Below are positions 6,777-62,566 of a DNA stretch of 64,000 nt, one piece after another (position 1 is the first letter of the stretch; every line of letters begins with the position of its first letter). A program made the translations under genes and the position numbers. This DNA is from Panorpa germanica (lineage: Eukaryota > Arthropoda > Insecta > Mecoptera > Panorpidae), in assembly GCA_963678705.1 (NCBI GenBank), contig OY783223.1, positions 4,526,001 to 4,590,000 of the forward strand, given 5' to 3'. A model generated the notes under the pieces. The model worked only from the letters and a program-made list of their open reading frames with translations. It searched no databases and was not told the DNA's origin.

Positions 6777-8115
6777 AAGCGGTTCCTTAGATATCACAAT
6801 TTATAAGATCGTGATGGTTGCTATTTTGAATCTTCTATAAAACAGAGAAGAGGAGAAATTATAAGTGACTCTACATCTAAAAGTTATCTCCTCATTAAAC
6901 TCTTTCATTGTACCAAATTTGATATTTCTATTAGAAAGTGCGGCATGAACCTGCACTGTCTCTCTGCTATACTAAATAAGGATGCGCGGCTTGGGAAAGG
7001 TTGATGACACGAAAAAATGCGTGGAAATAAATTTGTAGAGAATTTTATGCTCTACAAGTTTACTAATAACTCTAAAGGTTATTTAGAGCTTAGGAAAGAA
7101 GATATCTGCATAAAAAACATACCTTGCATATATTATATACCACGAGATATTTGAGAGAACTTATAAAATGTCAAGAGAAAAATTATCTCTTATTCCTTCT
7201 TAGATTTATCCTTTTCTTCGTCTTGTTATTAATACAAATTCAATATCTCATATTTTATAACTCATCAAGGAAATTAATAAATATTTACAAAACGTTAAAT
7301 TTACGTAAAGATTACATTTCTAAAATAATGATTCTATAAACTGACTGTCTCGCAACCTGTTAAATAACTTTATATTATCTTTATTTTTCCTCATCATTTC
7401 ACACTTTTCCGTGAACTTCTCTTGTAACATAAACCCAATAGACACCATCCCCTATTTTTCCCACTTCTGATATTTACATAAAAACTTTAAAATTTATTTC
7501 GACGGCATCGCAAACTCGCAAACGACGTCATGAGGAATTTGTTTACTTATGACGACGTTCATTTGAATACCAGGACATGTCCTTGCATCATATACCCATA
7601 TATAGAATATAGTTTAGACTATGCCTATACATATGATACTTGTAAATATATATCAACAATATCAATTTCATACCATCACATTCTGATCAACTTTTTTGTT
7701 TGAAATCAATTCAAACAAGGAAAATTGATTTAGCAGTGTTGAAAAAAGCAGTTATTTTTAACAAGTTTGTAATTTTGTGTATCAGTACTGTTTAAGGTCC
7801 TATGAGGTAACTACTTCAGGATACTAAATACTGATTTTATATCTTTCTGCAGACGTCGTATATATTTTCATTTAAGGGAAGCACCATTTGTTATTGTTAA
7901 GAGTAAATGAACTGTAATCCGACGATAAATAATAATAATATCTTTTTATCTTTATTATTAAGAAGTGTGTTTTCTCTTGGATAGCGAGTTACTATGTTTA
8001 ATTCATACCTGAACTTTGACTCACAAAATGCACTTTTCTATCATATTACTACTATACATATTATAAAATATTGATATATTGAATTTACTTTTTATTTGTT
8101 TAGTATTTTTTCATT
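6777..8115. other. Gene-free AT-rich DNA
   Basis: No supported gene, RNA or bounded repeat is seen between the two flanking TIR elements. Confidence 0.4.
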
Positions 8116-8661
8116 AATGGGCTTGTGTCCTATGTCTTAATTTCTATAAAAGTGTACTATATATTGATAAAGTGGGTTACTAGAACCTCAAATGTTTAAT
8201 TACTTTTTAATAACTCCTTATATGTTAAGAGATATTAACAATTAAAAAAGTCATTTTGTCTCTTTAATTATTAAAGGGATTCTACGTTGTACACATTCCC
8301 AGTGCATGTGACATCACAATCCTTGTGTAAGGTTACCAACCTTACAGCTCATAAATCTCTGCTATATGTATTTATATATCAAAATATCAAATATTATTTA
8401 CAGCTATTTCAAGGAACAATCAATTTTCAATATTATGTCTGCCGTAATAGTATAAATAACTGACGTTTAAATGCATTTCACGTCATACAAATATGGCCGA
8501 CCATCTCTAGCGCTAAAACTACAATTCGAATTTTTAATTGCTATATCTCCGTCAATATTTAGATATTTAATAAAATAGACACGCCAATACACATTTAATT
8601 ACATTAACTTCAATCAACAATTGAAAAATCGATCACTAAAAAATGAGGACACAAGCCCATT
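8116..8661 (+). mobile_element. TGGGCTTGTGTCC MITE, copy 1
   Basis: The element starts AATGGGCTTGTGTCCTA and ends GAGGACACAAGCCCATT, giving terminal inverted repeats of about 15 bp. It is 546 bp long and lacks an internal segment present in copies 2, 3 and 5. Its interior (the stretch with GTGACATCACAATCCTTGTG and the run through CTCATAAATCTCTGC) recurs at 25,995, 48,740, 60,671 and 61,944. No reading frame, so it must depend on a transposase encoded elsewhere. A clean target duplication could not be defined by eye. Confidence 0.8.
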
Positions 8662-14538: not shown

Positions 14539-15000
14539 CTAGAGTTTACCCCCGTATACAGCAAAAAAGAGCCCAACTTTTTTCCAGTTTTTCCAAAATT
14601 ACGGGTTTCCAGGAAATCAGGGAAAAATCCAGGGACGCCAAAAGTCTTAGAATTTTTTTCTCTACGAAATAGGCAATTTTCAAAAAACATTGACGGAGCC
14701 GTTTTCACGCTGCCATTCAAAATTCACTACCAAACATATAAGAATATAAGATCATAAGAATATAAGATCATAAATATACACTTGGAACATTATAATATAG
14801 GATTTCAAATTATTATTCCATTTTTAAATTGAAATGTTTAACTCATTCTATATTAATTTTACATATAACAACAAATAATTTTCAAAAACTTCACTGGAGT
14901 CGTTTTCGAGCCACTATACTAAATTCAGTATCAAACATATAAGAATATAAACTAAAAATATATGTTCCCTTTTAAAAATGTTTTAAACGTGGACGCCCAT
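14539..15000 (-). mobile_element. Helitron-like element (beta type), degraded
   Basis: The left end is ACTAGAGTTTACCCCCG, the reverse complement of a Helitron 3' end (CTAG then T), and matches the better-preserved end at 63,386. Inside, the block around CCAAAATTACGGGTTTCCAG and AGTCTTAGAATTTTTTT recurs at about 63,855-63,935 and, diverged, at about 36,070-36,160, all in the same orientation. The terminal hairpin here is no longer intact. The other end cannot be placed; 15,000 is approximate. There is no helicase or replication-initiator coding region, so the copy is non-autonomous. Confidence 0.5.
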
Positions 15001-16945: not shown

Positions 16946-17265
16946 CTAGCTCTTCGCCCCATTGCCTGGCAATTGCCTAGCAAAAAAAAGTCCATAAATT
17001 TTTAGAACTCCTAATAAAATCCAAAATAGTTACGATATTTTAAATTGTTTAACGCAGTTCGTTTTCTTAAACATAAATGGATATAACTGCATCAAAAAAT
17101 ATTTAGAAATCAATAAATTTTCCTTTTAAAAAATAAGCCCATGAATTTTTAGAAACCCTTATAAAATCCCAATTTGTAAAGATATTTTAAATTTTTTAAC
17201 GTAGTTCGTCTTCTTAAACATAATGGATATAGCTGCATCAAAAAATATTAAGAAATCAATAATTT
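16946..17265 (-). mobile_element. Helitron-like 3' end (alpha type) with two 146-bp satellite units
   Basis: The left edge, ACTAGCTCTTCGCCCCATTG, is the reverse complement of a Helitron-like 3' end. It is followed by a GGCAATTGCC inverted segment that would form the subterminal hairpin. Directly inward lie two copies of the satellite unit that makes up the large arrays at 32.7-36.05 kb, with CTGCATC landmarks at 17,087 and 17,233 (146 bp apart). Their orientation is that of the second large array. The inner limit is not clear. Confidence 0.55.
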
Positions 17266-17714
17266 TTCTTTTTCTTGAGGAGTATATTGAAAAATAAATT
17301 GAATTTTAAAAAAAATATTTCGAACGGAAACAATACATTCGTTGTCTTTACAACATTGTGGATTACATTAGAAAAATTAGTATATTTTTGCATATTTTAA
17401 AATATATGTGTACATAAATTTAACTTTATCAGCAATCAAAGTTTTCTTTTACTGAGTCTAATTATACAAGTGATGGCGACTGTGAACAGTGACGTCATCA
17501 AGGCACCAGCACACCACCACGTTCATGTTCTGTACTTTTAGTGTCCACAAGGTTGAACTTCCCTTTGAACTGTTTGAAATATACGACTTTATATGTACCG
17601 TCAGGTACATGTGCCAGACTTTTTTTTTAATAATTACTGTGAACTGTCTACAAAAGTATTGCATACATGAGAGAACATAAGTATACATAGCCCAGAAAAC
17701 AAACGTTTCTTCAT
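17266..17714. other. No supported feature
   Basis: Overlapping frames of 63 and 76 codons on opposite strands (17,458-17,688) have no recognisable domain. No repeat partner was noticed. Confidence 0.35.
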
Positions 17715-32594: not shown

Positions 32595-32735
32595 CTAGCT
32601 CTTCGCCCCATTGCCTAGCAATGGGTGTATATTATACGTTTGTTATAGAAATCTTATTTCTTATTTGTCTAATTTTTAATAGAGAAATATCCGCTACACG
32701 TTAAATTGATAAACTAATGTTCTGGCTTTTTGTAA
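32595..32735 (-). mobile_element. Helitron-like 3' end (alpha type) beside satellite array
   Basis: ACTAGCTCTTCGCCCCATTG here is the reverse complement of an element end. On the minus strand it forms an 8-bp stem (CCCATTGC / GCAATGGG) with a 3-nt loop, followed by about 10 nt and CTAG-T. That is the textbook arrangement of a Helitron 3' terminus. It matches 16,946. Going inward the sequence passes into the 147-bp array. The distant 5' end was not found. Confidence 0.6.
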
Positions 32736-34590
32736 TCTTTCCTATATTTATAGGCTTTTTCCTAAAATAAGAGTTAATTTGTTTTTCATGGTTTGATGCA
32801 ACTGCTTTATTACACTTTAAACATCAATGCTTTTTAGGTTTCTATGCGACCTTTTTTAAATTCATGGACATTTCTTTCTAGAGAAAATTTAGGATCTTTG
32901 AAAACTTTTAATACAGTTAACTGTGTTAAAAGGATTGAAATATTTCAACATTTGTGGATTTTATAAGGGTTTCTAAAAATTCATGGACTTTTTTTTCAAA
33001 AAAAATAATTATTGATTTCTTAATATCTTTTGATGCAGTTATATGCTTTAGGCTTTAAGAAGACGAACTGTCTTAATAAATTTGAAATATACCAACATTT
33101 GTGGATTTTATAAGGGTTTCTAAAAATTCATGGACTTTTTTTTCAAAAAGAATAATTATTGATTTCTTAATATCTTTTGATGCAGTTATATGCTTTAGGC
33201 TTTAAGAAGACGAACTGTGTTAATAAATTTGAAATATACCAGCATTTGTGGATTTTATAAGGGTTTCTAAAAATTCATGGACTTTTTTTTCAAAAAAAAT
33301 AATTATTGATTTCTTGATATCTTTTGATGCAGTTATATGCTTTAGGCTTTAAGAAGACGAACTGTGTTAATAAATTTGAAATATACCAACATTTGTGGAT
33401 TTTATAAGGGTTTCTAAAAATTCATGGACTTTTTTTTCAAAAAAAATAATTATTGATTTCTTGATATCTTTTGATGCAGTTATATGCTTTAGGCTTTAAG
33501 AAGACGAACTGTGTTAATAAATTTGAAATATACCAACATTTGTGGATTTTATAAGGGTTTCTAAAAATTCATGGACTTTTTTTTTCAAAAAAAAAAATTA
33601 TTGATTTCTTAATATCTTTTGATGCAGTTATATGCTTTAGGCTTTAAGAAGACGAACTGTTTTAATAAATTTGAAATATACCAACATTTGTGGATTTTAT
33701 AAGGGTTTCTAAAAATTCATGGACTTTTTTTTCAAAACAAATAATTATTGATTTCTTAATATCTTTTGATGCAGTTATATGCTTTAGGCTTTAAGAAGAC
33801 GAACTGTGTTAATAAATTTGAAATATACCAGCATTTGTGGATTTTATAAAGGCTTCTAAAAATTCATGGACTTTTTTTTCAAAAAAAATAATTATTGATT
33901 TCTTAATATCTTTTGATGCAGTTATATGCTTTAGGCTTTAAGAAGACGAACTGTGTTAATAAATTTGAAATATACCAACATTTGTGGATTTTATAAGGGT
34001 TTCTAAAAATTCATGGACTTTTTTTTTCAAAAAAAAAATTATTGATTTCTTGATATCTTTTGATGCAGTTATATGCTTTAGGCTTTAAGAAGACGAACTG
34101 TGTTAATAAATTTGAAATATACCAACATTTGTGGATTTTATAAGGGTGTCTAAAAATTCATGGACTTTTTTTTTCATAAAAAAAATTATTGAATTCCTAA
34201 TATCTTTTGATGCAGTTATATGCTTTAGGCTTTAAGAAGACGAACTGTGTTAATAAATTTGAAATATACCAGCATTTGTGGATTTTATAAAGGCTTCTAA
34301 AAATTCATGGACTTTTTTTTCAAAAAAAATAATTATTGATTTCTTAATATCTTTTGATGCAGTTATATGCTTTAGGCTTTAAGAAGACGAACTGTGTTAA
34401 TAAATTTGAAATATACCAACATTTGTGGATTTTATAAGGGTTTCTAAAAATTCATGGACTTTTTTTTCAAAAAAAAAAATGAATGATTTCTTAATATTTT
34501 TTGATACAGTTATATCCTTTTAGCTTTAAGAAAACGAACTGTGTCAATAAATTTAAAATATCTCAATTTTTGTGGACTTTATAAGATTTT
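32736..34590 (+). repeat. 147-bp tandem array, forward orientation
   Basis: Using GATGCAG as landmark, units start at 33,032, 33,179, 33,326, 33,473, 33,621, 33,768, 33,915, 34,062, 34,209, 34,356 and 34,503. Spacing is 147 bp in every case but one (148). Units within the array are nearly identical; degenerate units occur at the left edge (from about 32,740) and right edge. Each unit has GGATTTTATAAGGGTTTCTA, TTCATGGACTTTTTTTTC and GCTTTAAGAAGACGAACTG. No frame runs through it. Confidence 0.95.
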
Positions 34591-34599
34591 TAAAATGTA

Positions 34600-36045
34600 A
34601 AATATTTTTTATAAAACCCTTCTAAAATCCACAAAACTGTAGATATTTCAAATCTGTTAAAACAGTTCGCCTTCTTAAACCTTAACGGATATAACTGCAT
34701 CAAAAAATATTAGGAAATCAATAATTTTACTTTTTGAAAAAAAAGTCCATGAATTTTTAGAATCCCTTATAAAATCCAAAATAGTTAAGATATTTTAAAT
34801 TTTTAATGCAGTTCGTCTTCTTAATTATAAATGAATATAACTGCATCAAAAAATATTAAGAAATCAATAATTTTTCTTTTTGAAAAAAAAGTCCATGAAT
34901 TTTTAGAATCCCTTATAAAATCCAAAATAGTTAAAATATTTTAAATTTTTTAATGCAGTTCGTCTTCTTAATTATAAATGAATATAACTGCATCAAAAAA
35001 TATTAAGAAATCAATAATTTTTCTTTTTGAAAAAAAAGTCCATGAATTTTTAGAATCCCTTATAAAATCCAAAATAGTTAAAATATTTTAAATTTTTTAA
35101 TGCAGTTCGTCTTCTTAATTATAAATGAATATAACTGCATCAAAAAATATTAAGAAATCAATAATTTTTCTTTTGAAAAAAAAGTCCATGAATTTTTAGA
35201 ATCCCTTATAAAATCCAAAATAGTTAAGATATTTTAAATTTTTTAATGCAGTTCGTCTTCTTAATTATTAATGAATATAACTGCATAAAAAAATATTAAG
35301 AAATCAATAATTTTTCTTTTTGAAAAAAAAGTCCATGAATTTTTAGAATCCCTTATAAAATCCAAAATAGTTAAAATATTTTAAATTTTTTAATGCAGTT
35401 CGTCTTCTTAATTATAAATGAATATAACTGCATCAAAAAATATTAAGAAATCAATAATTTTTCTTTTTGAAAAAAGTCCATGAATTTTTAGAATCCCTTA
35501 TAAAATCCAAAACAGTTAAGATATTTTAAATTTTTTAATGCAGTTCGTCTTTTTAATTATAAATGAATATAACTGCATCAAAAAATATTAAGAAATCAAT
35601 AATTTTTCTTTTTGAAAAAAAAGTCCATGAATTTTTAGAATCCCTTATAAAATCCAAAATAGTTAAGATATTTTAAATTTTTTAATGCAGTTCGTCTTCT
35701 TAATTATAAATGAATATAACTGCATCAAAAAATATTAAGAAATCAATAATTTTTCTTTTTGAAAAAAAGTCCATGAATTTTTAGAATCCCTTATAAAATC
35801 TAAAATAGTTAAGATATTTTAAATTTTTTAATGCAGTTCGTCTTCTTAATTATAAATGAATATAACTGCATCAAAAAATATTAAGAAATCAATAATTTTC
35901 CTTTTTGAAAAAAAAGTCCATGAATTTTTAGAATCCCTTATAAAATCCAAAATAGTTAAGATATTTAAAATTTTTTATTCAGTTCGTCTTCTTAATTATA
36001 AATGAATATAACTGCATCAAAAAATATTAAGAAATCACGTCAGAT
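34600..36045 (-). repeat. 146-147-bp tandem array, inverted orientation
   Basis: This is the reverse complement of the same unit type. The CTGCAT landmark falls at 34,695, 34,841, 34,988, 35,135, 35,281, 35,428, 35,573, 35,720, 35,866 and 36,012, so spacing is 145-147 bp. Units read GTCCATGAATTTTTAGAATC, TTATAAAATCCAAAATAG and TGCAGTTCGTCTTCTTAA. They are very alike among themselves but clearly different from the forward array, so the two arrays have been homogenised separately. Confidence 0.95.
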
Positions 36046-36330
36046 ATTTGCAAAAGTATTATTTCAAATTTTCCAGTTTTTCCAGAATAATTTTTTCCAG
36101 GGAAATTCAGGGACATATTCACGGACGTAGAAAGTCTTAAAAATTCGTCCTTTACATAATATCAAAATTTAAAAAACTTTGTAGGCGCCGTTTAGAAGAT
36201 ACCATATAGATTTTGTTACCGGATATATATATAAATATATATATATATATAAATATCTATGAGTTCTTATGAGTTTTCCATGTTACATTGGAACATTACG
36301 AACATTATAATAGTAAGATTAGATAAAAAC
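36046..36330 (-). mobile_element. Helitron-beta-like internal segment flanking the array
   Basis: The stretch with CCAGTTTTTCCAGAATAATT, CAGGGAAATTCAGGGACAT and AAGTCTTAAAAATTCGTCC is a diverged copy of the interior of the elements at 14,539 and 63,386, in the same orientation. A (TA)n-rich run follows at 36,220-36,255. It suggests the double array lies inside a larger Helitron-like composite. Confidence 0.45.
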
Positions 36331-42433: not shown

Positions 42434-43089
42434 ACTCACTGTTTTGATATTTAGTTGACGTTTTTATTTCATATTTTAATCTAGATTTCAGGTTTTCAGA
42501 ATAGCCATTCCTTGTCACATTCGTGTTTTAATTTGAGTTTTAGTTAGTTTAGTTGATGCGCATGCGTCATTAGTTTATTTATAAATTTTGACAGTTTGGC
42601 AGTTGGACAAAATTGTGTGTGGAATAATTACAATGACTATTAATAATAACAATTACTTATAGAAATTGTTTTTACTTCTTTATTTTTGACAAACTGATAT
42701 TGAACTTCTTTAAAAATAAATCCTACTGCACTTTGACAGATTGTCACATTTTGGAGGTTATAATATAATATAGTTTTTGTTAATTTAGTAAATTTTATTA
42801 GGAATTGTTATTATTTAAATTGTCAATTCCTTTTTATCTAATTTTATAATAACATAACATTATGCACAGTGAGTTCTGTCAGCTCTTACTCGTCCCACCA
42901 CACACACTACAATGATAGTAGCTATAACTAATATATCCCGTTAGCTCATCTGACCAGAAAGCAATTTTAATATTTCTGGTCAGTGTTACCAACTGAAGAA
43001 ATATAATTTCGCAAAAATGGCGCAGAGAATGATTTAAATTAAATACAAAATTAAAAATTAAATTAAAACAGTGAATGGGAATGATACAA
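42434..43089 (+). mobile_element. ATTCCCATTCA TIR element, copy 3
   Basis: It starts TCACTGTTTTGATATTTAG and ends CAGTGAATGGGAATGATAC. The interior follows copy 2 from TTTTAATCTAGATTTCAGG to about 42,795. It then contains about 230 bp of unrelated sequence before the right end returns near 43,045. The extra piece may be an internal segment lost from the other copies, or an insertion. Confidence 0.65.
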
Positions 43090-44540: not shown

Positions 44541-45391
44541 TTTCGTGCTTAACGGGTTATGTGTAACAATGGAAGCCAACTGATAAACTTTTTCACAAAT
44601 TTTACTTTAAATTTATACTGAAACACAATGGACGATAGCCCAGGCTACTGTGTCTTTGGGTTCTATCTCAGGACCACAGATATATTTTCTGGCTTTGGTT
44701 GTTATCAAGTTAAATTGATTGTGTAAATTACTTATCAGAAATAGACTGACATTAAATAAACTAAATGAAAAAATAATAATATTTACTGGAGTTGACTTAG
44801 TTTTTTATGTAGACTTGCACATTGATAAATATTTCGCCGAATTGAATAATTTTCCATTAGTACGTGAAACAACACTATGATTTTAACAACACACTTATAT
44901 TCTAATACGTAATTAATTAAAGAAATCAATATAATACGAAAATTTGTTTAAAATATTTTTATTTAACTTGCTTTTGATTTCTTGCCAGCGGTTGGTGTTA
45001 GGGAACTGTTCTGCGAGGCGTCTGTTGGACCAGCCGCAGAAAATATTAAGGCAATACGATATTAAAAACAACAAACAAAACCAAGTTAAACAATTACAAA
45101 ACTGAAATAAATAAATAATTGTTTTAACAATAGAATTACAATTGATTAGTTACTTCAAAACAAATTTTAGTTACTTCAAATTTAATTGCCGCCAAAAATG
45201 GGTATGGTAATGGTAAGAAAAAGGCGGCAAAGTAGGACTAAACTTTTAAAAGAGGCTCTTTAAGTGCTGTACCTCCATAAGTCGGTGAAAATGACCCAAC
45301 AATTGAAATCGTCATAAAACAATATAGAAAAAAATATTTAATGGTTTTTATACCATAACGTTTACGAAATATATTTCTATATATAGGGTTA
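44541..45391. other. No supported gene
   Basis: A GC-richer patch at 44,990-45,045 has a good acceptor-like pyrimidine tract on its left (TTTTGATTTCTTGCCAG). On the minus strand it gives a short open stretch (RRLAEQFPNTNRWQE) but no donor that would close an exon. It could equally be transposon debris. Confidence 0.3.
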
Positions 45392-45800
45392 TTTTATGGA
45401 TGTTGCAATAGGAGTGGTCATTTTACGGATGTTTCAACAAGAGAAATCATTTAATTAATGTTGCAATAAGAGCGGTCCTTTTATTGATGTAGCAATAAGA
45501 GCGGTCATTTTATGGATGTTGCAACAAGAGCGATTATTTTATTGATGTTAAAATAGGAGCGGTCCTTTTATGGATGTTGCAATAAGAGCGGTCTTTTTAT
45601 GGATGTTGCAACAAGATCGATTATTTTATTGATGTTAAAATAAAAGCGATCCTTTTATGGATGTTGCAATAAGAGCGGTCTTTTTATGGATGTTGCAACA
45701 AGATCGATTATTTTATTGATGTTAAAATAGGAGCGGTCCTTTTATGGATGTTGCAATAAGAGCGGTCTTTTTATAGATGTTGCAACAAAACAGTAATTTT
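45392..45800 (+). repeat. 29-bp minisatellite with 87-bp higher-order repeat
   Basis: The basic unit is TTTTATGGATGTTGCAATAA followed by GAGCGGTCC, about 29 bp. From 45,540 on, three unit variants (one with GTTGCAATAAGAGCGGTC, one with GTTGCAACAAGATCGATTA, one with GATGTTAAAATAGGAGCGG) repeat as a trimer. The GATGTTAAAA landmark falls at 45,544, 45,631 and 45,718, exactly 87 bp apart. No spacers and no palindromic unit, so it is not a CRISPR. Confidence 0.92.
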
Positions 45801-48739: not shown

Positions 48740-49328
48740 AATGGGCTTGTGTCCTCATTTTTTAGTTGTCAATTTTTCAATTGTTGATTGAAATTGATGT
48801 TTATAAATGTGTATTGGTGTGTCTAGTTTATTAAAAATCTAAATATTGACGAAGATTGTAGTTTTAGCGCTAGAAATGATCGACCATATTTGTATGACGT
48901 AAGTACGTCAGTGCTGCGGTAATGTTATGTAGCTGTTGGTAGTCAAATAATCAAGTTAAGTCAAAGAATAATAAGTTTTTATTTTATTTAACCCTGTTAC
49001 GGCAGACATAATATTGAAATTTTATTGTTCCTTGAAATAGCTGTAAATAATATTTGATATTTTGATATATAAATACATATAGCAGAGATTTATGAGCTGT
49101 AAGGTTGGTAACCTTACACAAGGATTGTGATGTCACATGCATTTGGAATGTGTACAACGTTGAATCCCTTTAATAATTAAAGAGACAAAATGACTTTTTT
49201 AATTGTTAATATCTCCTAACATATAATGAGTTATTAAAAAATAATTGGACATTTGAGGTTCTAGTAACCCACTTTATCAATATATAGTACACTTTTATAG
49301 AAATTAAGATATAGGACACAAGCCCATT
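48740..49328 (-). mobile_element. TGGGCTTGTGTCC MITE, copy 3
   Basis: About 589 bp, inverted relative to copies 1 and 2: AATGGGCTTGTGTCCTCAT on the left and AGGACACAAGCCCATT on the right. The interior block with GTAAGGTTGGTAACCTTAC is well preserved. Confidence 0.8.
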
Positions 49329-52300
49329 AGAAATAGAATGGTGAAATAAAAAGCAATATATATATATATATATATATAGTAAATATATTACTGTATATTT
49401 TTAATGGCAATTTACGAAAGAAACCTTTTTAATAAGAACCCAGCATATGGTCTTCCATGTAGACCAGCATGTAATAAATTATTAAAAATAAAGAAACAAT
49501 TGTATTCGTGAATAATATATATTCCTACAACACCCATTCTAAGAAAATATACGTACTCGTACATTCGTAATTTAAAATGCACCTCTACTTTATAATCTTA
49601 CATACCACATAATTAAGAATCGATTGCATGGAACCATATGCAGTTAAAACGGCCTTATTTCTATTCTTTTACACAACTTTAAAACCTTCCAAATCACGTG
49701 ACTATCCACTTTTCCAGTAAACACGCAAGCGCCCACGTCTGCTGCCATCTACTGGCTCTAATTGCTTTAAATTATTTATTATTTTTCCTGTACTATTTTC
49801 AGAGATCATGAATTTTTAATAAAATCTTAAAAATTTAATTTTAATTGTTGAATAGATTGATTGAACTAGAAAATGGAAAAGTTTATTTCACTGTTTCACA
49901 CTAAAATAGATTTAATGTCCATGTATTTATAAGTAGATTTAAATCGTGAATTTATAGTGAATTGGGTTATTTTTGTCCTTATAACTAAACTAGGACTTCA
50001 TCCCGTCGCAGAATGACGTGTTGATAATGATTTAATTAAAAAATATTTTTTAAATTATAAATACTAATGCCTATATTTTATAAATTAGTCTACTTAAGAT
50101 CGCTCCAAGGTATGGAACTTATATTGCATTTTATTTTATGTCGGCTACCAGCTTTTCTGCCAATTTTTCACTCTAAGTAATTTAGAGATACATTTCTGAA
50201 TTAGAGGCTTTGAAAAATGACCTAATAATTTACAAAATAGGGCTCATCGTCTCTCCACTCACCCCCGCCACTGGATCTAAAAAAATTATTTTACATTCAA
50301 AAGAAAACACATCAATTATAATTTTAACCGTATGGTTTAAAATTTTGTCTCCTATTTATTATCCATTCTTATGTACTTCGAAATAATAAAAGTGTATACT
50401 GCATAGTAAAATATTTTTAAAAAATTTGAAGAGACTGCGTTTATTTTATAGGTATTTAGAATTAGGACAGCGGTGTCTCTCTTCGCTGTACACTTTATCA
50501 TTTACGGACACAATCACCTCTATCCAACAAATTTTAATTCATTAAATCATCGTTTACGTGGTCTAAAATTTGAACCTGGAAAAATCAACTAAACTCAAAA
50601 CACGAATATTACGAGAAACACATGTAAAATGTTGCTTAAACGAAAACCAGTAAAATTCAATCGATTTTTAAAAATTTCTAATTTTCGTCCAATTTGTTTT
50701 TATTATTAAAACAACCTTGTCGCAAATATATGCATCCTCAGATATTCCTAGCTCTAGTGTGTGGTCGCCCTAAAAGGTAACATTTCTTTCTATAAAATAA
50801 ACCTGAAATATACGCAACTTTGTTTAGCAAGACACAAATTTCACATTAAATCAAAGAGAAAATTTTCCTTGAATAGATGCAAATTTTTCTAAAGCTGGCA
50901 ACACTTCAAAGACCACCCTTTGAATTTCATGGAACTAGTTATCATAAATTCAAAAATTGCTCATTGATTTGATATGGAATTACTCTGCAGCAGCGTTTTA
51001 GTTTGTGCAACAAAGTAACAAAAGAAACAAAGCGAACTTTATTAAAAATTTCCTGAAAATTTTATCATGCATAATTCTACATTTTTTTTTTTTTTGACAA
51101 TGCTTACGAACCATTTGATAATACATTTAAATCTCTTCTGGATTTGCAAATAATTTTCCAATGTATTTTATTTTCACTAACATTTTAAACCTAAATAATA
51201 TTTTCTTTTTAAATATTCACAGTTATTATTTAATTTTATATAAATAAATACTACGTATTATAATTTATTCTTTTTAACAGAAACTTCAAAGTTCGCGAGT
51301 TAATAAAAGTCCGTTGACTAAAGCTTAATTCGCGGAAGTGAGAAAGATGCTTTCCTGTCAAAGTAAAAGCACTGACTGTTCGTTTCAATAGACTTTAGTA
51401 CAATAAAACGACGCCAGGCGTCGCGCTGCTTTGTTATGAACGTATTTTGAAAAGCAACGATTTGCCACATAATTTACGACTTGAATCAAGTAGTGACATC
51501 GTTTGGCCATTACGGTAACTACAGGATTTAGTAAAAGCTCTAATTTATTATATCTAAAGCTTTTTAAAATTTAAAAGGTAATCATTTTAAAATAATGAGC
51601 TTTTATTTATATTGGTCATAAAAAAAAAATAATGTTATAAAAATAGGTCAAGTCTGTAAATGAATTTAGTGATTACTTTTTTTTAATTTATTTTAATTAA
51701 TCAAATATATTGAAAATTAAATTGAGTAGCGCGCTTAATATAAATTTTTATAAAACTGTGGTATGTATTGATGCCAATTATTTGTTAATTAACCACAATT
51801 CTATTGAGGCGATGTGCGATAGCAGCACCAAATGATTTGGAACTAAAGGAGGCTTTCTTGACATTATAGCAAAACAGTTAAATAAGATTTTATGGTTAAA
51901 CATTTGTAGTTTTTATTTAACATTTTATGAAATATAGCTAAATAATTTCAGTTTATATAGTCTTTTTTGGATCAGCAATATAATTAATGAAATAGCCAGA
52001 ACAAATCTAAAATTATTAGGTTAAGTTAGTAAGGATACCAACCAATTACAGACAATATTCTTATACACAGTCATTTTGTCAAAAGTTCTGTATAAATATG
52101 ATGAAAGTAAACAACGTAATTCGAAAAATAAATAACATAATTTAACACGTCTGTTCTAGCGCAAGGGTTTGCCATAAATAAAGGTTATAAATTTATGACA
52201 AACCCTTAGAAATGTTACCAGTCATATAAAAAATTTAAATAAATAAGGCAATATTCATTTTTAAAATTTTGCTATGGTTCTATTCATTGCTATTCATTTT

Positions 52301-53040: not shown

Positions 53041-53190
53041 ATTCTATTTATATTTATAAATTTTGTTTACAGAAGCTACATTTATCCATATGTAAATAAC
53101 AACTCCATTTATATACATATTTTTAGCAACTGGAGTAATGAATATTTATACAAAAATTAGTTACGTCGCTGCTTAAGTTACACGACTATC

Positions 53191-55086
53191 ATGACTGAAG
53201 ACAATAGATTTAAAAGAAACCAAGCAATCGGTGATTCTAATATGAATCAACAAAGTAATATTGTCAAACACCGAACCAAAGCAACTCAAAATCAAAACAG
53301 ATACAAAAGACATTCGGGTGGAGCTTTATTTTTGATAGAACAGACAGTGACAAATTCTTCGCAAAATGATTTACACAAATCTAAGTCAACTTCATCAATA
53401 AATGACGAACATACTGAAGCACCTTCACAGCTAGCAAAATCAAAATCAGAATTAAATTTAAATAACAGCAAACGATGTATTGACGACATAAAGGAAGACA
53501 AGACAAGTTTACAAGTTATTAAAAGTGCTAAAATAACCGTTGAAGTTCATACAGACCCTTTGAGAAGAATTTCGGAAAATAATATGAATGATATAGTAAT
53601 GAACAGTGGTTCTTCATCGCCGATAATAACCAATGCTTACGCTTCTACACCAAATCCAAATGATAATCATATTCCGTTGCATAATTCTTATTCTACAATT
53701 CACAAATACTCAAACAGGGGTCCGATTGCAGCTAATTCCCAAAGCAGTAGTCCTACTACTAGCACCGCTTCAGAGATAACGATGACATCTAACAGTGATT
53801 TTCCTCAGCAACCACACGTAATTGATGTGAAAAATATTAAAATACCAATTGTTGGCTACGAAGTAATGGAAGAGAGGGCTAGATTTACGGTAATATTCTA
53901 ATCATTTTAACTTTAATTCTACCAAAGTCGTACATATCATTAATTTTATTTTGAATTATAGGTTTATAAATTGAGAATTCTCACTGGTGCACTTGGAGAA
54001 ACATGGCTAGTCCTGCGGAGATATACCGATTTTGTTCGACTGTATAACCGACTTAAACTGGAGTTTCCAACTGTTACTCTGCCATTACCGAGAAAGAAAT
54101 GGTTCGGAGATAACTTTAAGCCGAAATTTCTACAGGACAGGGTGCAAGGTCTTTAGTAGATAATAGTTTTACATTCAATAATTATCTAATTAATGTATTT
54201 TATTTATAAACATCAATTATTTATTTCCAGGCTTACAATACTTTATTAACAGCGTACTTTCGTATAACTTTTTAGTTGAAAGTCAAACTGTTAAAGAATT
54301 CTTTTGTTTAAACGAGCCACCAATTTATTCGGAATGTATGGAGGATAGCAGGGTATGTTTAATGATTTTAGGTTAAGAGTAGTATTCTCCATTCTTTACG
54401 TGAACACACTAGTAAAACTCTCCCAAATAAGCTTGTAAAAATAAGCTAACATTGGTCGATGTTCTAATTCAATTCAAAAATTATCTAAGACGACTTGTTG
54501 TTCGTTTTTTTTTAGTGGAGACATTATTTTGCATTTTCATGGGGATTAATGACAACCGTTTGGTGCATACGCAGCTTTATAATGAATTAAATTCTAATAT
54601 TTCTCTGTAAATTGACTTTGTATTCTATCAGGCTTTATTCGAGGCACAGGAAGAAACAATACTTCAACTTCGAAAGGAAATTCTGAGAAAGGACAATAAA
54701 CTAAGCGAACTCGAAGACAGACTTGCTGATGAAGTTGACAGAAATCACAAATTGCAGACTTATATAAAGTAAAAATTATAAATGAGTATTAGAAAATAAT
54801 TATATATTTTATTGTAATCTTTAATAGAAGTTATAATGACGTAAGAATTTAAATTATGCCATTATATATTATTTAAAGCTTACAATGGAATATATGCATT
54901 TATTTATTAGCTTTATAGATAGTTAAATGATAATCACTATATATTTTCAGAAATACTCAAAAGAATTGTGTAAATTGCAAGGAAGAAATTAATAAAGTAA
55001 TTAAATTAGACAGTAATATATCTAAAACTGATACTAAAGAAAATAGTACGTTGAGAAGTAACAGACAAGTATCAAATCAAACATAA
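53191..55086 (+). CDS. Snx16: Sorting nexin-16 (PX domain, coiled coil)
   Basis: Five coding exons with GT-AG introns join in frame to 426 codons: 53,191-53,889, 53,962-54,148, 54,231-54,352, 54,632-54,768 and 54,951-55,086. The first 215 residues or so are low-complexity, rich in Ser, Asn and Lys. The PX domain (about residues 215-330) starts IPIVGYEVMEERARFTVYKL. It carries the phosphoinositide-binding RRYTDFVRLYNRL motif, the LPLPRKKWFGDNF loop and FLQDRVQGLQYFI. After FFCLNEPPIYSE a coiled-coil helix follows (EETILQLRKEILRKDNKLSE). PX plus a C-terminal coiled coil with the FLCL-type linker is the SNX16 arrangement. The family binds PI3P on early and late endosomes and acts in receptor trafficking; in flies it affects synaptic growth signalling. 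The start is the first ATG of the open exon and has A at -3. The C-terminus is rather short after the coiled coil. A polyadenylation signal lies at 55,393. Confidence 0.93.
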
Positions 55087-55790: not shown

Positions 55791-57147
55791 ATGGTAAGTT
55801 TTTAGTTAATACAATAACAACTTAAAAATAAATCTTGCATTTTTATAATGAATTTACTGCTGTATTATTTGTGGAAGGCTTCAACATATTGTCGTGACAG
55901 ATAGGTTATGTCCTATTTTGAAACGAAATAATCAATTTATAATTTTTGGAGGTATAATAAAAAGAAAGTTTAGAACGCGGTCATTACTTACTCTGTTAAT
56001 TACAAGTTAAATTCCTACAACACCTTTTAGGTTGTATATAGTAGTAAATTCATTAGTTTTAACTAATGACTCATTCTTAATATCACGTATATTTCAGAAA
56101 CCGCTTATACTCCAGGGACATGAACGTTCCATTACTCAAATTAAATACAATCGTGAAGGGGATCTCTTGTTCTCCTCGTCGAAAGATCACAAACCTAATG
56201 TGTGGTTCTCATTGAATGGTGAACGACTAGGTACTTTTAATGGACACAATGGTGTAGTCTGGTGCATTGACGTCGATTGGCAAAGCACCAGGTTTATGTC
56301 AGGAAGTGGAGACCGGTCTTTAAAGTACGTAATCAAAACAATGTTACTAATATTACTTAGTTATTCTCTATATTTACAATGTTTATGCATTATTTATAGA
56401 TTGTGGGATATTGAACGTGGAAAGGAAATTGGAACAATTAATTCCAATTCATCTGTAAGAACTTGTAACTTCAGTTTCTCTGGAAATCAAGCTGCATATT
56501 CAACAGATCAAACTAAACATGGAGCTTGTGAACTTTACATCATTGATGTCAGGAACGCCGATGCTAGTATCGAACATTCTGATCCAATCATGAAGATTCC
56601 CATCCCAGACAGTAAAATTACATCAACATTATGGGGACCTCTTGATGAAACCATCATCACCGGTCACGAGAACGGATCAGTGTGCTCCTGGGATCTTAAA
56701 TCTGGAAGAATGATTAACTCCGTAACTGATCATGCTAATGTTATCAACGATATGCAAATGTCAGCCGATGGAACCATGTTTGTCACAGCATCTAGAGATA
56801 TGACTGCTAAACTTTTCGATACAGATTCTCTATTATGTCTTAAATCGTACAAAACAGAGCGTCACGTTAATTCTGCTGCTATCAGCCCTATCAAGGAGCA
56901 TGTCGTTGTTGGAGGTGGACAAGACGCTATGGAGGTCACGACAACTTCCACTAGGCAAGGAATGTTCGATGCCAGATTTTTCCATTTGGTTTATGAAGAG
57001 GAATTCGGTAGAGTAAAGGGACATTTTGGACCCATCAATAGTTTAGCGTTCCATCCTGATGGAAAGAGTTTCAGCACAGGCGGAGAAGATGGTTTCGTTC
57101 GTGTTCAAAGTTTTGATCCTTCATATTTTGATTATTCTTTCGATTAA
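55791..57147 (+). CDS. eIF3i: Eukaryotic translation initiation factor 3 subunit I
   Basis: Coding exons are 55,791-55,793, 56,098-56,324 and 56,400-57,147, joining to 325 residues, the usual length of this subunit. The first coding exon is only the ATG, which is followed at once by GTAAGT. The protein begins [19 protein letters not shown] and shows WD-repeat blades along its whole length. Examples are [47 protein letters not shown] and [14 protein letters not shown]. Near the C-terminus are the family-typical [13 protein letters not shown] and [20 protein letters not shown]. eIF3i (also called TRIP-1) is a seven-bladed propeller that joins eIF3b and eIF3g in the peripheral part of eIF3 and aids 43S complex assembly and scanning in the cytoplasm. 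The frame continuing upstream of 56,098 is intronic. An AATAAA follows at 57,218. Confidence 0.97.
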
Positions 57148-58662: not shown

Positions 58663-60670
58663 GTAATTTATATTAGATTTAATAAGAAATATTTATCAAT
58701 TTACTTGTTTGTTTATAATATTTACATCTATATAAAAAAATAAACATGTATGACGTACAACTATTGTTGAAACATAATGACATTTTAACAAAAACATGTT
58801 TATAAATATTATAAATAAACAAATTCTACAATGTTTAAATTTCGTATTTAGAATTTTTAAGTCTGCTATTTATTATTGTTTTGTTATTTATACTTTTTGA
58901 CATTTACATTTTTTAATTCATAAAATACCATCCTAATTTGAAAATTATACATAACTATTTACAATAATAGGTCTATTGTTATTTTTAATTATTATTACAT
59001 TAGCGGAGAAAATAAAATCGCAACTTTCTCTAAATAGCTGTTTGTGTGTGTGAAATTATTATAAAATTTTAATATTTTGGTGATTAGTTTTCTTAGAATT
59101 ATATGAAAAAGTTTAGTTTTGTGACATTTCTTCGCACTTTACTGTCTGCATTATATTTATATAAGCAGTGCCAGACTTAAGAATTTCGATAGGTTATTTT
59201 TTCTGATGCTGGTTTTTTTCTTCACCCTGCTGTCAAAACTTTGGTGTAATATTTTTATTTAATGAATATAGAAATATGTATTTCTCTTTTTCGACTGCTA
59301 CATAATCAAAAAACAAGTGAGCTCATCACAACTAATACGAACATAACGAAATAATGTAAAGTTTGCATATTATATTAGTAGCAGTACCAATAATATAAAA
59401 AGCATTACATAAAACATAATTATTTTACGAAGGAAAATAACTTATTCGCAAAGTAAGCCGCTTTACCGATTTACATATTGAAACGTTGTTATTTACTACA
59501 TAGAAAAATGTTGCTATTTTTTAAATACAATTTTCTATTATAAATATTGTTTTGACACGAAATCATGTTCGGCAAGCGAAACAAATAGATAGGAATAGAA
59601 ATAAAAAATAATATTATGATAATAGAAACATACAGTTATATTAATTATAATAATTATAAAAAAATTATACCTTGAGTAATAATTAAATATAAAAAAATAA
59701 ATGTTAATAAAGCGATTTTCTTTTTTAACAATATGTAGAATGACAGTAAAATATATGTAATATAGCAAACTTTATTTAGGATGTATTTAAAGAAAAAATT
59801 AGTGGTACAGTGGCTGAGTGCTATTTGTTTTATTATAATGATATCCTCTACTATGTTGGCAAAGTTTATAGTGTCGGGCCTCCTATATGTGGGCCACACC
59901 GTTACCTAATAAGTTTACGATTATTTATATACATAATGAATTTAATTTAATAACAATCAAGCCTAGAAAATATACCTCTGATCCAGGGGTCGAACCCAGT
60001 TTTAATTTTAAACAAACTAGCGTTTCTATACTTATTGTACATTCCTATTATTATTATTTTTAGTTGTATTACTAGAAGAGTTTGTTTAATAATTAGTTAT
60101 ATACATTATTTTGGAATGTGTACACATTAGAATGGAATCTAGTACATTGTAGGCGTATTATAACATTACGATATACGCTCTGGGATTTATAAGCATTAAG
60201 CATTATACACGCCGAGATCTTTTAGTGAGTTTACACGTTACACATTCCTTCATGAAAAAAATGGGTAAAAAATAAAAATATCAGTCTTCTATTTATCAAA
60301 CGGCCTATAGTATTTTCTATTCTTTATTTTGTTCGATGTACAATTTATTATTTATTCGATTTTTCCATTTTAATTGTTTATTACGTTTCGATAGCGTGTC
60401 TGTTAGAATAACGATTGATTTTATTTTGTGTTGGGTGTAAAAGGGCAAAAAATGCCAGAATATAATAAATATATAAGAGGCACAATGATCTTGTTCATAG
60501 ACGTCCGCATAGGGGGGGAAATAGTGTACATAATTGAAACGGTTGTGGGTCAGTTTATATCATATTATGCTAAAGAAATTCATCGCGAAGAATAGGGAGA
60601 GATAAACATTGAAGGAGGAGTTAAATAATCTATGATAAATTACATATGGAAGAAATTAGCCGGGAAGCTT
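58663..60670 (+). other. Intron 1 of the unidentified gene, left part
   Basis: Very AT-rich with no exon. At 59,805-60,000 a segment with GGTACAGTGGCTGAGTGCTA at one side and GGGGTCGAACCC at the other looks vaguely like a tRNA-derived sequence, but boxes and spacing do not fit well enough for a call. Confidence 0.4.
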
Positions 60671-61203
60671 TATATGTTAAGAGAAATTAACAATTAAAAA
60701 AGTCATTTTGTCTCTTTAATTATTAAAGGGATTCAACGTTGTACACATTCCAAGTGCATGTGACATCACAATCCTTGTGTAAGGTTACCAACCTTACAGC
60801 TCATAAATCTCTGCTATATGTAGTTATATATCAAAATATCAAATATTATTTACAGCTATTTCAAGGAACAATCAAATTTCAATACACTGTCTGCATTAGT
60901 AGGGTTAAATAAAATAAAAACTTATTATTCTTTGACTTGTTTTGATTATTATGACTACCAACAGCTACAAAACATTACCGCAGCACTGACCTACTCAACA
61001 AATAACTTACGTTTAAAATGCATTTCACGTCATACAAATGACCGTCACAGCGCTAAAACTACAATTCAAAATTTTAATTGCTATATCTCCGTCAACATTT
61101 AGTTATTTAATAAAATGGAACGACGGAATTAATGGAAATGGAATGACGCCAGTACACAACAATTGAAAAATTGACCACTAAAAAATGAGGACACAAGCCC
61201 ATT
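60671..61203 (+). mobile_element. TGGGCTTGTGTCC MITE, copy 4 (5'-truncated)
   Basis: It begins inside the element at TTATATGTTAAGAGAAATTA, about 95 bp from the normal left end, and ends with GAGGACACAAGCCCATT. Near 61,100 a short ACGGAATTAATGGAAATGGA insertion or replacement is unique to this copy. Confidence 0.75.
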
Positions 61204-61943: not shown

Positions 61944-62566
61944 AATGGGTTGTGTCCTCATTTTTTAGTGGTCGATTTTTCAATTGTTGATTGAAATTGA
62001 TGTTAATAAATGTGTGTTGGCGTGTCTATTTTATTAAATATCTAAATATTGATGGAGATATAGCAATTAAAAGTTTGAATTGTAGTTTTAGCGCTAGAAA
62101 TGGTTGGCCATATTTGTATGACGTGAAATGCATTTTAACGTCAGTTATTTGTTGAGTAGGTCAGTGGTGTGGTAATGTTTTGTAGCTATTGGTAGTCATA
62201 ATAATCAAAACAAGTCAAAGAATAATAAGTTTTTATTTTATTTAACTCTGCTAAGGCAGACATAATATTGAAATTTGATTGTTCCTTGAAATAGCTGTAA
62301 ATAATATTTGATATTTTGATATATAAATACATATAGCAGAGATTTATGAGCTGTAAGGTTGGTAACCTTACACAAGGATTGTGATGTCACATGCACTTGG
62401 AATGTGTACAACGTTGAATCCCTTTAATAATTTAAGAGACAAAATGACTTTTTTAATTGTTAATATCTCTTAACATATAAGGAGTTAGTAAAAAATAATT
62501 GAATATTCGAGGTTCTAGTAACCCACTTTATCAATATATAGTAAACTTTTATTTGACAAACCCATT
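61944..62566 (-). mobile_element. TGGGCTTGTGTCC MITE, copy 5
   Basis: About 623 bp, inverted relative to copy 4 and 740 bp away. The left end is AATGGGTTGTGTCCTCAT (one base lost) and the right end is damaged (TTTGACAAACCCATT). The interior is well preserved, including GGTAACCTTACACAAGGATT. Confidence 0.78.

What the first reader, a model, noticed from the sequence alone, without database searches (positions are those of the whole stretch)
32595..36045. Two opposed 147-bp satellite arrays meeting at a palindrome-like junction
About 11 forward units (147 bp, one of 148) and 10 inverted units (145-147 bp) meet near 34,595. Units are nearly identical within each array but clearly different between arrays, so each was amplified after the inversion or from a different starting unit. 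The period equals the DNA length of a nucleosome core, as in many centromeric satellites, yet the array is small and dispersed. Transcripts through the junction could fold into long, partly mismatched double-stranded RNA and feed small-RNA pathways. The period and orientation are read directly; the functional idea is inference.
Basis: partly seen in the sequence, partly recalled or inferred. Interest (0 to 1): 0.75.

Follow-up and report, generated by a model that had tools for sequence, protein, structure and literature searches.

The report
Helitron with opposed satellite arms
The two mirror-image repeat arrays are not a centromere-like satellite but the inside of a small rolling-circle jumping gene (a non-autonomous Helitron), whose two arms differ in length from copy to copy and have exchanged DNA with each other, even flipping the middle.

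Summary
In detail: 11 full forward units (A, 147 bp) and 9 full inverted units (B), about 85% alike, meet at a 10-nt spacer, 34,596-34,605. It is neither a free satellite nor an assembly artefact. Window 32,595-36,318 is a non-autonomous canonical Helitron on the minus strand: A^TC...CTAG^T, a 19-nt palindrome 12 nt from the 3' end, no target-site duplication, and precise empty sites for 4 copies. The 50-nt junction occurs 16 times genome-wide at <=3 mismatches (reversed control 0); I examined all 16, plus 3 relatives. All 16 have the opposed-array plan, but A arms hold 9-46 units and B arms 4-29, uncorrelated, although the 3' end is 99.65% identical between copies. Some interior units are multiplied privately at single loci. 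The arms recombine: two copies carry a flipped centre, one a B tract inside arm A, and an older subfamily has the same hybrid units in both arms. The window copy is a chimera whose last 281 bp come from another Helitron family. Helitrons with internal satellite arrays are known; a foldback version with centre inversions looks like a new variant. Nucleosome, centromere and small-RNA ideas are unsupported or untested.

The parts
32595..36318 (-). non-autonomous Helitron (foldback type), 3,724 bp; transposon 5'->3' runs on the minus strand
   Evidence: A before CTAG and T after ...TAAGA; no ORF of 80 aa or more inside; empty-site paralogues
32595..32598 (-). 3' terminus CTAG (CTRR type), followed by host T on the minus strand
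   Evidence: base next to CTAG is A on + in 17 of 17 copies counted; also in L041 and L037
32607..32625 (-). 3' terminal palindrome, 8-bp stem with 3-nt loop, 12 nt from the 3' end
   Evidence: read from sequence; 34 exact copies of the 31-nt end genome-wide, reversed control 0
32626..32771 (-). subterminal region without array units
   Evidence: first 185 nt from the 3' end: mean pairwise identity 99.65%, minimum 98.7%, over 16 copies
32772..34595 (+). arm A: one degenerate unit, 11 full 147-bp units, partial unit of about 51 bp at the centre
34596..34605 (.). 10-nt spacer at the centre of symmetry
   Evidence: the 155 nt around it are 98-100% identical in 16 copies
34606..36037 (-). arm B: inverted partial unit of about 47 bp, 9 full units, truncated last unit
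36038..36318 (-). 5' terminal 281 bp shared with another Helitron family ('Y'); 5' end TC on the minus strand, preceded by A
   Evidence: the 39 other scored copies of 40 begin at exactly 36,038; 9 of 9 inspected Y copies have other sequence before that base and end ...TAAGA followed by T; CTAG-palindrome 3' ends in 2 of 2 extended Y copies
42808..42880 (-). empty-site paralogue of the insertion target
   Evidence: spans the joined flanks of the window copy, 73 nt at 90%
16946..17273 (-). degraded relict: same 3' end fused almost directly to about two units in the orientation of arm B

Best explanation
It is a non-autonomous canonical Helitron that carries two opposed satellite-like arrays as foldback arms. 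It is mobilised by Rep/helicase from other Helitrons in the genome (inferred) and inserts precisely between A and T (shown). The head-to-head plan, centre and 3' end are inherited through transposition (shown by identity across copies); arm lengths differ independently from copy to copy, with multi-unit blocks private to single loci (shown as pattern; unequal exchange or slippage inferred). The arms pair with each other: crossing-over flips the centre and conversion moves B tracts into arm A (patterns shown, mechanism inferred). The opposed plan probably began as a snap-back inverted duplication with a short loop inside one unit (inferred). The window copy is a chimera that inserted as one element with a 5' end of another Helitron family (supported by one uninterrupted empty site for both its ends).
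For: Ends and target: A before CTAG in 17 of 17, T after the 5' tip in 10 of 11 both-ended copies, and a twelfth, L041, fits. Empty sites for WIN, L027, L038 and L041. Census: 34 exact 3' ends, control 0; 16 junctions, control 0, all 16 examined. Arm lengths 9-46 and 4-28 in the first count, rho 0.16, p 0.57. Private blocks. Nearest relative in the same locus 0.326 for A and 0.258 for B against maxima 0.124 and 0.102 in 100 permutations. Flips in L038 and L041, a B tract in arm A of L033 and hybrid units in both arms of L040 and L041. Rep domain PF14214: 150 matches, every listed row above cut-off, 25 rows with a 1119-aa open frame, 0 of 14 control genomes.
Against: L035 has G, not T, after its 5' tip. 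The 5' tips were located by their motif, so 'TC' in these copies is partly by selection; the alignment and the empty sites are the independent support. Seven of 19 loci (L024, L028, L029, L032, L033, L034, L037) have no recognised 5' tip in the DNA fetched. Eight of the 12 both-ended copies gave no good empty site. No autonomous partner with this 3' end was found: by eye, none of the listed Rep places lies within 10 kb of any of the 34 3' ends. Within-locus mean identity in arm B (0.9721) does not exceed the permutation maximum (0.9723), and B's inner edge units are less alike between loci (0.963) than interior ones (0.980). Seventeen of the 34 exact 3' ends were not inspected.
Confidence: 0.92

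Rival explanations
1. A foldback DNA transposon of the FB/Galileo/Tetris type: long terminal inverted repeats made of tandem subrepeats, moved by a DDE transposase with target-site duplication.
For: Opposed tandem arrays around a short centre, the plan described for foldback elements such as Tetris (PMC4079207, abstract and passages).
Against: The ends are not inverted repeats (4, 4 and 8 of 30 positions match in the 3 copies tested), and the empty sites of 4 copies show no duplication.
Confidence: 0.03
2. A centromeric or nucleosome-phased satellite with dispersed fragments.
For: Modal spacing 147 bp.
Against: All 19 loci examined carry the Helitron 3' end; the 34 exact 3' ends lie on 17 contigs; both arms also contain spacings of 145, 146, 148 and 149 bp. 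The listing was cut, so a large array elsewhere is not excluded by it.
Confidence: 0.03
3. An assembly artefact at a repeat boundary.
For: Inverted tandem arrays are hard to assemble (general knowledge).
Against: The same junction with 0-1 mismatch at 16 places, in different flanks and with different arm lengths; both flanks of four copies match empty sites.
Confidence: 0.02
4. The arms are kept because they do something: hairpin transcripts enter small-RNA pathways, or a single-stranded hairpin helps replication of the element.
For: Very stable predicted fold; opposed plan in all 16 junction copies and in 3 relatives, one with another palindromic centre.
Against: No transcript, small-RNA or transposition data; common descent from one source copy explains the retention in the 16.
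Confidence: 0.12

Closest known systems
Canonical non-autonomous Helitrons of insects, e.g. Hel-2 of Lepidoptera (PMC4344730, passages)
   Same: 5'-TC, 3'-CTAG, 3' stem-loop, A/T flanks; internal tandem repeat arrays mentioned in a figure legend
   Different: two opposed 147-bp arrays forming a foldback; centre inversions; no sequence comparison with Hel-2 was made
Cg_HINE of Crassostrea gigas and HINE/DINE-1 Helentrons (PMC7492417 and PMC4067079, passages)
   Same: rolling-circle elements with a central satellite-like array of similar unit length and variable copy number
   Different: Helentron structure with subterminal inverted repeats; in Cg_HINE repeats and flanks had the same orientation without exception. 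A review (PMC12628747, passages) mentions oyster Helitron/Helentron arrays 'oriented in different directions'; its source paper is not held
Tetris, a foldback transposon of Drosophila virilis (PMC4079207, abstract and passages)
   Same: terminal inverted repeats containing tandem repeats (about 220 bp units) that feed satellite-like expansion
   Different: has terminal inverted repeats and target-site duplications; not a Helitron
Helraiser, bat Helitron (PMC4778049, passages)
   Same: 3' hairpin acting as terminator; transposon circles; truncated and new 3' ends
   Different: here the exchanged end is the 5' one, and there are foldback arms

Membership tests
canonical Helitron | 5' TC terminus | tested here: met
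   the 11 both-ended copies start TC on the coding strand (TCC in 10, TCT in the window copy), L041 also TCC; tips were located by motif, so partly by selection, but one search shows similarity ending there
canonical Helitron | 3' CTRR terminus | tested here: met
   CTAG in 17 of 17, L041, L037
canonical Helitron | 16-20 nt palindrome about 11 nt from the 3' end (definition from PMC4067079, passage) | tested here: met
   19-nt palindrome, 12 nt from the end
canonical Helitron | inserts between A and T, no target-site duplication | tested here: met
   17 of 17 A; 10 of 11 T, L035 being the exception, plus L041; empty sites for 4 of 12 both-ended copies
canonical Helitron | encodes Rep/helicase (autonomous members only) | tested here: not met
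   no ORF of 80 aa or more within 32,595-36,318, so non-autonomous
canonical Helitron | autonomous partner sharing its ends in the same genome | tested here: inconclusive
   Rep domains abundant, but no listed place lies near a 3' end of this family (compared by eye; 150 of 893 candidates scored)
Helentron/HINE | flanked by T, T-rich target (from legends and a passage of PMC4067079) | tested here: not met
   A before, T after
Helentron/HINE | subterminal inverted repeats | not tested
   not searched for
foldback DNA transposon | terminal inverted repeats at the element ends | tested here: not met
   4, 4 and 8 of 30 positions match in the 3 copies tested
foldback DNA transposon | target-site duplication | tested here: not met
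   0 bp in 7 of 11 copies, 2-5 bp AT-rich matches in 4; none in the empty sites of 4 copies
centromeric satellite | long arrays concentrated at one region per chromosome | tested here: not met
   short arrays inside dispersed elements at the 19 loci examined; 3' ends on 17 contigs; not all 653 unit matches were placed
centromeric satellite | CenH3 occupancy | not testable with these tools
   no chromatin data

The most novel reading that the evidence does not exclude
A foldback Helitron class in which the opposed arrays are part of the life cycle: the single-stranded intermediate folds into a kilobase hairpin, hairpin-primed or slipped synthesis re-sizes both arms each time the element moves, and arm-to-arm crossing-over works as an inversion switch, making the element a generator of opposed satellite arrays and possibly of dsRNA.
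Probability: 0.2. Interest if true: 0.7.

Novelty: new variant of a known kind. Interest (0 to 1): 0.52.

Why it matters
It gives a set of all 16 junction copies of one young family, in which the turnover of satellite arrays can be read arm by arm against nearly identical ends. It shows that a Helitron can carry and spread a palindrome thousands of bases long, and that the two arms have exchanged sequence. It also explains, without centromere biology, how a 147-bp satellite comes to lie in short opposed arrays scattered over a genome.

Tried and rejected
Considered and rejected: centromeric satellite, TIR/TSD foldback transposon, assembly artefact, Helentron (see rivals and membership rows). 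Viral-contig scans: a 16-nt unit motif gave 5 stretches, which share only the 16-18 matching bases and short AT-rich pieces with the unit, treated as chance; a 24-nt piece of the 3' end gave 0. Rfam: 0 matches; ARAGORN: 0 genes. Higher-order repeats: identity does not depend on lag 1-10 in either arm of the young subfamily, so TRF's 293-bp period is not a true dimer there. In the first oriented set I turned L041 the wrong way; one search corrects this, and the L041 maps are in the reversed sense. L038 was excluded from the arm statistics because its centre is flipped; L037, L040 and L041 were excluded as other subfamilies; L033 too was left out when diagnostic columns were chosen. The unit counts predate the extension of L026 and L034 (one search gives 27 and 29 B units), and L030's 9 B units include one from a neighbouring fragment (searches show 8); the statistics were not rerun. 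An apparent 11-base insertion at the centre of L028 is an alignment end, not an insertion: its 155-nt junction aligns without gaps.

Literature: searches (held library only). In their listings and in the passages read I found no Helitron described with two opposed arrays meeting at a conserved centre; one review mentions arrays in different directions.

Full report
WHAT IS THERE. The window is C20:4,526,001-4,590,000 of an unnamed 464-Mb genome in 249 contigs; from its content I take it to be an insect (inference, no call). Arm A (11 full units on +) and arm B (9 full units on -) meet with a 10-nt spacer at 34,596-34,605. The partial units beside the spacer (about 51 and 47 bp) face each other and are complementary in the predicted fold, as expected if the palindrome arose inside one unit.

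IT IS A MOBILE ELEMENT. The 147-bp unit gave 653 matches from 40 scored candidates of 718; the listing was cut. I fetched 18 regions chosen from the best-listed places. All 18, and the window, carry the same 3' end (L037 with changed bases), and 18 of the 19 carry the same junction: 98-100% over 155 nt in 16, 95.5% in L040 and L041; L037 has another centre. Genome-wide, the 50-nt junction occurs 16 times with up to 3 mismatches (none had more than 1) on 11 contigs, reversed control 0, and all 16 are loci that I examined. The 31-nt 3' end occurs 34 times exactly on 17 contigs, control 0; 17 of these lie in my loci, 17 were not inspected.

IT IS A CANONICAL HELITRON. The left boundary is sharp in the alignment of 17 copies: CTAG, 8 nt, palindrome. 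Read on the minus strand this is a Helitron 3' end. In 11 copies the other end was found, by its motif: A^TC(C/T)TA... on the minus strand; the alignment of ten right flanks shows similarity stopping there in the full-length copies. The base next to CTAG is A in 17 of 17; the base after the 5' tip is T in 10 of 11 (L035 has G). L041 adds a twelfth both-ended copy with A and T. Seven of 19 loci show no recognised 5' tip in the DNA I had. Joining flanks and searching the DNA in hand gave matches spanning the joint for the window copy (3 hits), L027 (19), L038 (20) and L041 (19), some of them the same place held in two loci. In the rows printed (at most five per copy) the joint lies between A and T with no duplicated or missing bases, except that one of the three window-copy hits has T in place of A. 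For L025, L026, L030, L031, L035, L036 and L039 only self-matches, array matches or weak AT-rich matches came up, and L040 gave none. The termini are not inverted repeats in the three copies tested. No ORF of 80 aa or more lies inside. Rep/helicase domains are abundant in the genome: 893 candidates, 150 scored and matched, every listed row above cut-off, 25 of them with a 1119-aa open frame, 0 of 14 control genomes. Whether one of these moves this family is inferred: compared by eye, none of the listed places is within 10 kb of one of its 34 exact 3' ends.

AGE AND ARM TURNOVER. Across 16 copies the first 185 nt from the 3' end are 99.65% identical on average, minimum 98.7%, so the family is young; yet no two of the 15 standard copies have the same pair of arm lengths (A 9-46 units, B 4-28; up to 29 in B after extension), and A and B lengths are uncorrelated (rho 0.16, p 0.57). 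Of 131 distinct A types and 133 distinct B types (long A or T runs equalised), 18 and 15 occur in more than one locus; others are multiplied privately: types 2 and 5 only in arm A of L027, type 9 only in arm B of L034, types 7 and 10 only in arm B of L036, and repeated blocks in L033, L026 and L032. The innermost A unit is of one type (4) in 8 of 15 loci, the innermost B unit of one type (6) in 6 of 15. Nearest relatives lie in the same locus for 0.326 of A units and 0.258 of B units against maxima of 0.124 and 0.102 in 100 permutations; mean within-locus identity exceeds all 500 permutations in A (0.9639, maximum 0.9589) but not in B (0.9721, maximum 0.9723). Edge units of A are more alike between loci (0.976 and 0.974) than interior ones (0.964); in B this does not hold (inner edge 0.963, outer edge 0.980, interior 0.980) although B's inner edge unit is clearly a variant of its own (0.908 to the interior). 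So part of the interior multiplies locus by locus, more visibly in A.

THE ARMS RECOMBINE. Fifteen of 147 columns distinguish A from B at more than 90% in each arm. L038 reads from the 3' end: one A-type unit, 14 B-type units in A orientation, the inner B-side unit, the centre in reverse, two A-type units and a hybrid unit, then 9 B-type units: the outcome expected of one crossover between the arms. L041, of the older subfamily, also has its centre reversed relative to its 3' end. L033 carries a B tract in arm A running from the middle of one unit to the middle of the next. In L040 and L041 both arms carry the same A/B hybrid units, often alternating as dimers. L037 has mostly B-type arms 93.5% alike over 2.0 kb, with matching units outward from a different 712-bp palindromic centre. 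Two of 18 copies with the recognised centre are thus flipped.

THE WINDOW COPY IS A CHIMERA. Its arm B stops within a unit at 36,037, and from 36,038 the sequence is the 5' terminal 281 bp of another family, Y: of 40 scored matches (2150 candidates in the first look) the 39 that are not the window itself begin at that base; in 9 of 9 inspected the sequence before it is other DNA, shared among them; and 9 of 9 end ...TAAGA followed by T. The two extended Y copies show a CTAG-palindrome 3' end with A before it. Both window ends fit one empty site, so the chimera most likely inserted as one unit. Full-length copies (L025, L030, L031, L035, L036, L039) instead have a 5' domain of roughly 0.9 kb that contains an internal 5'-tip-like stretch abutting a CTAG-palindrome, which looks like a second Helitron fused in tandem.

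HOW IT WORKS. Shown: precise A^T insertion in four copies, inherited foldback plan, private arm blocks, flips and conversion-like tracts, chimeric 5' end. Inferred: mobilisation by resident Rep/helicase; unequal exchange, slippage or hairpin-primed synthesis as cause of arm change; snap-back origin of the palindrome; crossover as cause of flips. Not tested: transcription, small RNAs, chromatin. The 147-bp period alone says little: spacing varies from 145 to 149, and rolling-circle elements elsewhere carry arrays of similar unit length (predominantly 140-180 bp in oyster, PMC7492417, passages).

NOVELTY. Satellite-like arrays inside rolling-circle transposons, and their role in spreading satellites, are established (PMC7492417, PMC12628747, PMC4344730, PMC4067079: passages). 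Tandem-repeat-bearing inverted arms are established for foldback DNA transposons (PMC4079207, abstract and passages). The combination in a canonical Helitron, with a conserved centre, independent arm lengths and centre inversions, I did not find in the searches listed under Tried and rejected; I rate it a new variant of a known kind.

Noticed in passing
14539-14802: A complete short Helitron (about 264 bp): A|CTAGAGTTTACCCCC... to ...ATAATATAGGA|T; its 3' end resembles the one fused inside the 5' domain of the full-length copies.
   Followed up: partly
63386: Another Helitron 3' end of that second family, CTAG plus a palindrome, preceded by A.
   Followed up: no
L027 (C9) and L041 (3' end at C3:1505960): Copies of two different subfamilies sit at the same nucleotide of copies of one host repeat; L034 has a similar left flank. 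Target hot spot or exchange between loci.
   Followed up: partly
C1:491632 (+) and C1:502659 (-): Two exact 3' ends in opposite orientation 11 kb apart, as if one large inverted element or two separate ones.
   Followed up: no
L037, 3735-9359: Relative with mostly B-type arms, 93.5% alike over 2.0 kb, and a different 712-bp palindromic centre; about 5 kb match their own reverse complement at 84%.
   Followed up: partly
45387-45788: 29-bp minisatellite, 13.8 copies, also called as an 87-bp (3-unit) repeat with 91% matches.
   Followed up: no
8083-8450, 48994-49361, 60670-61017, 62133-62480: Dispersed repeat in both orientations, 93-96% alike; copies of it are empty sites for L027, L038 and L041.
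   Followed up: partly
53161-53901 and 56011-57147: Open frames that look like a sorting nexin 16 N-terminus and eIF3 subunit i (WD40); names are from recall, no database call was made (frames).
   Followed up: no
whole genome, PF14214: 25 listed Rep-domain places with a 1119-aa open frame, on several contigs and mostly with the same score, suggesting recent spread of an autonomous Helitron.
   Followed up: no
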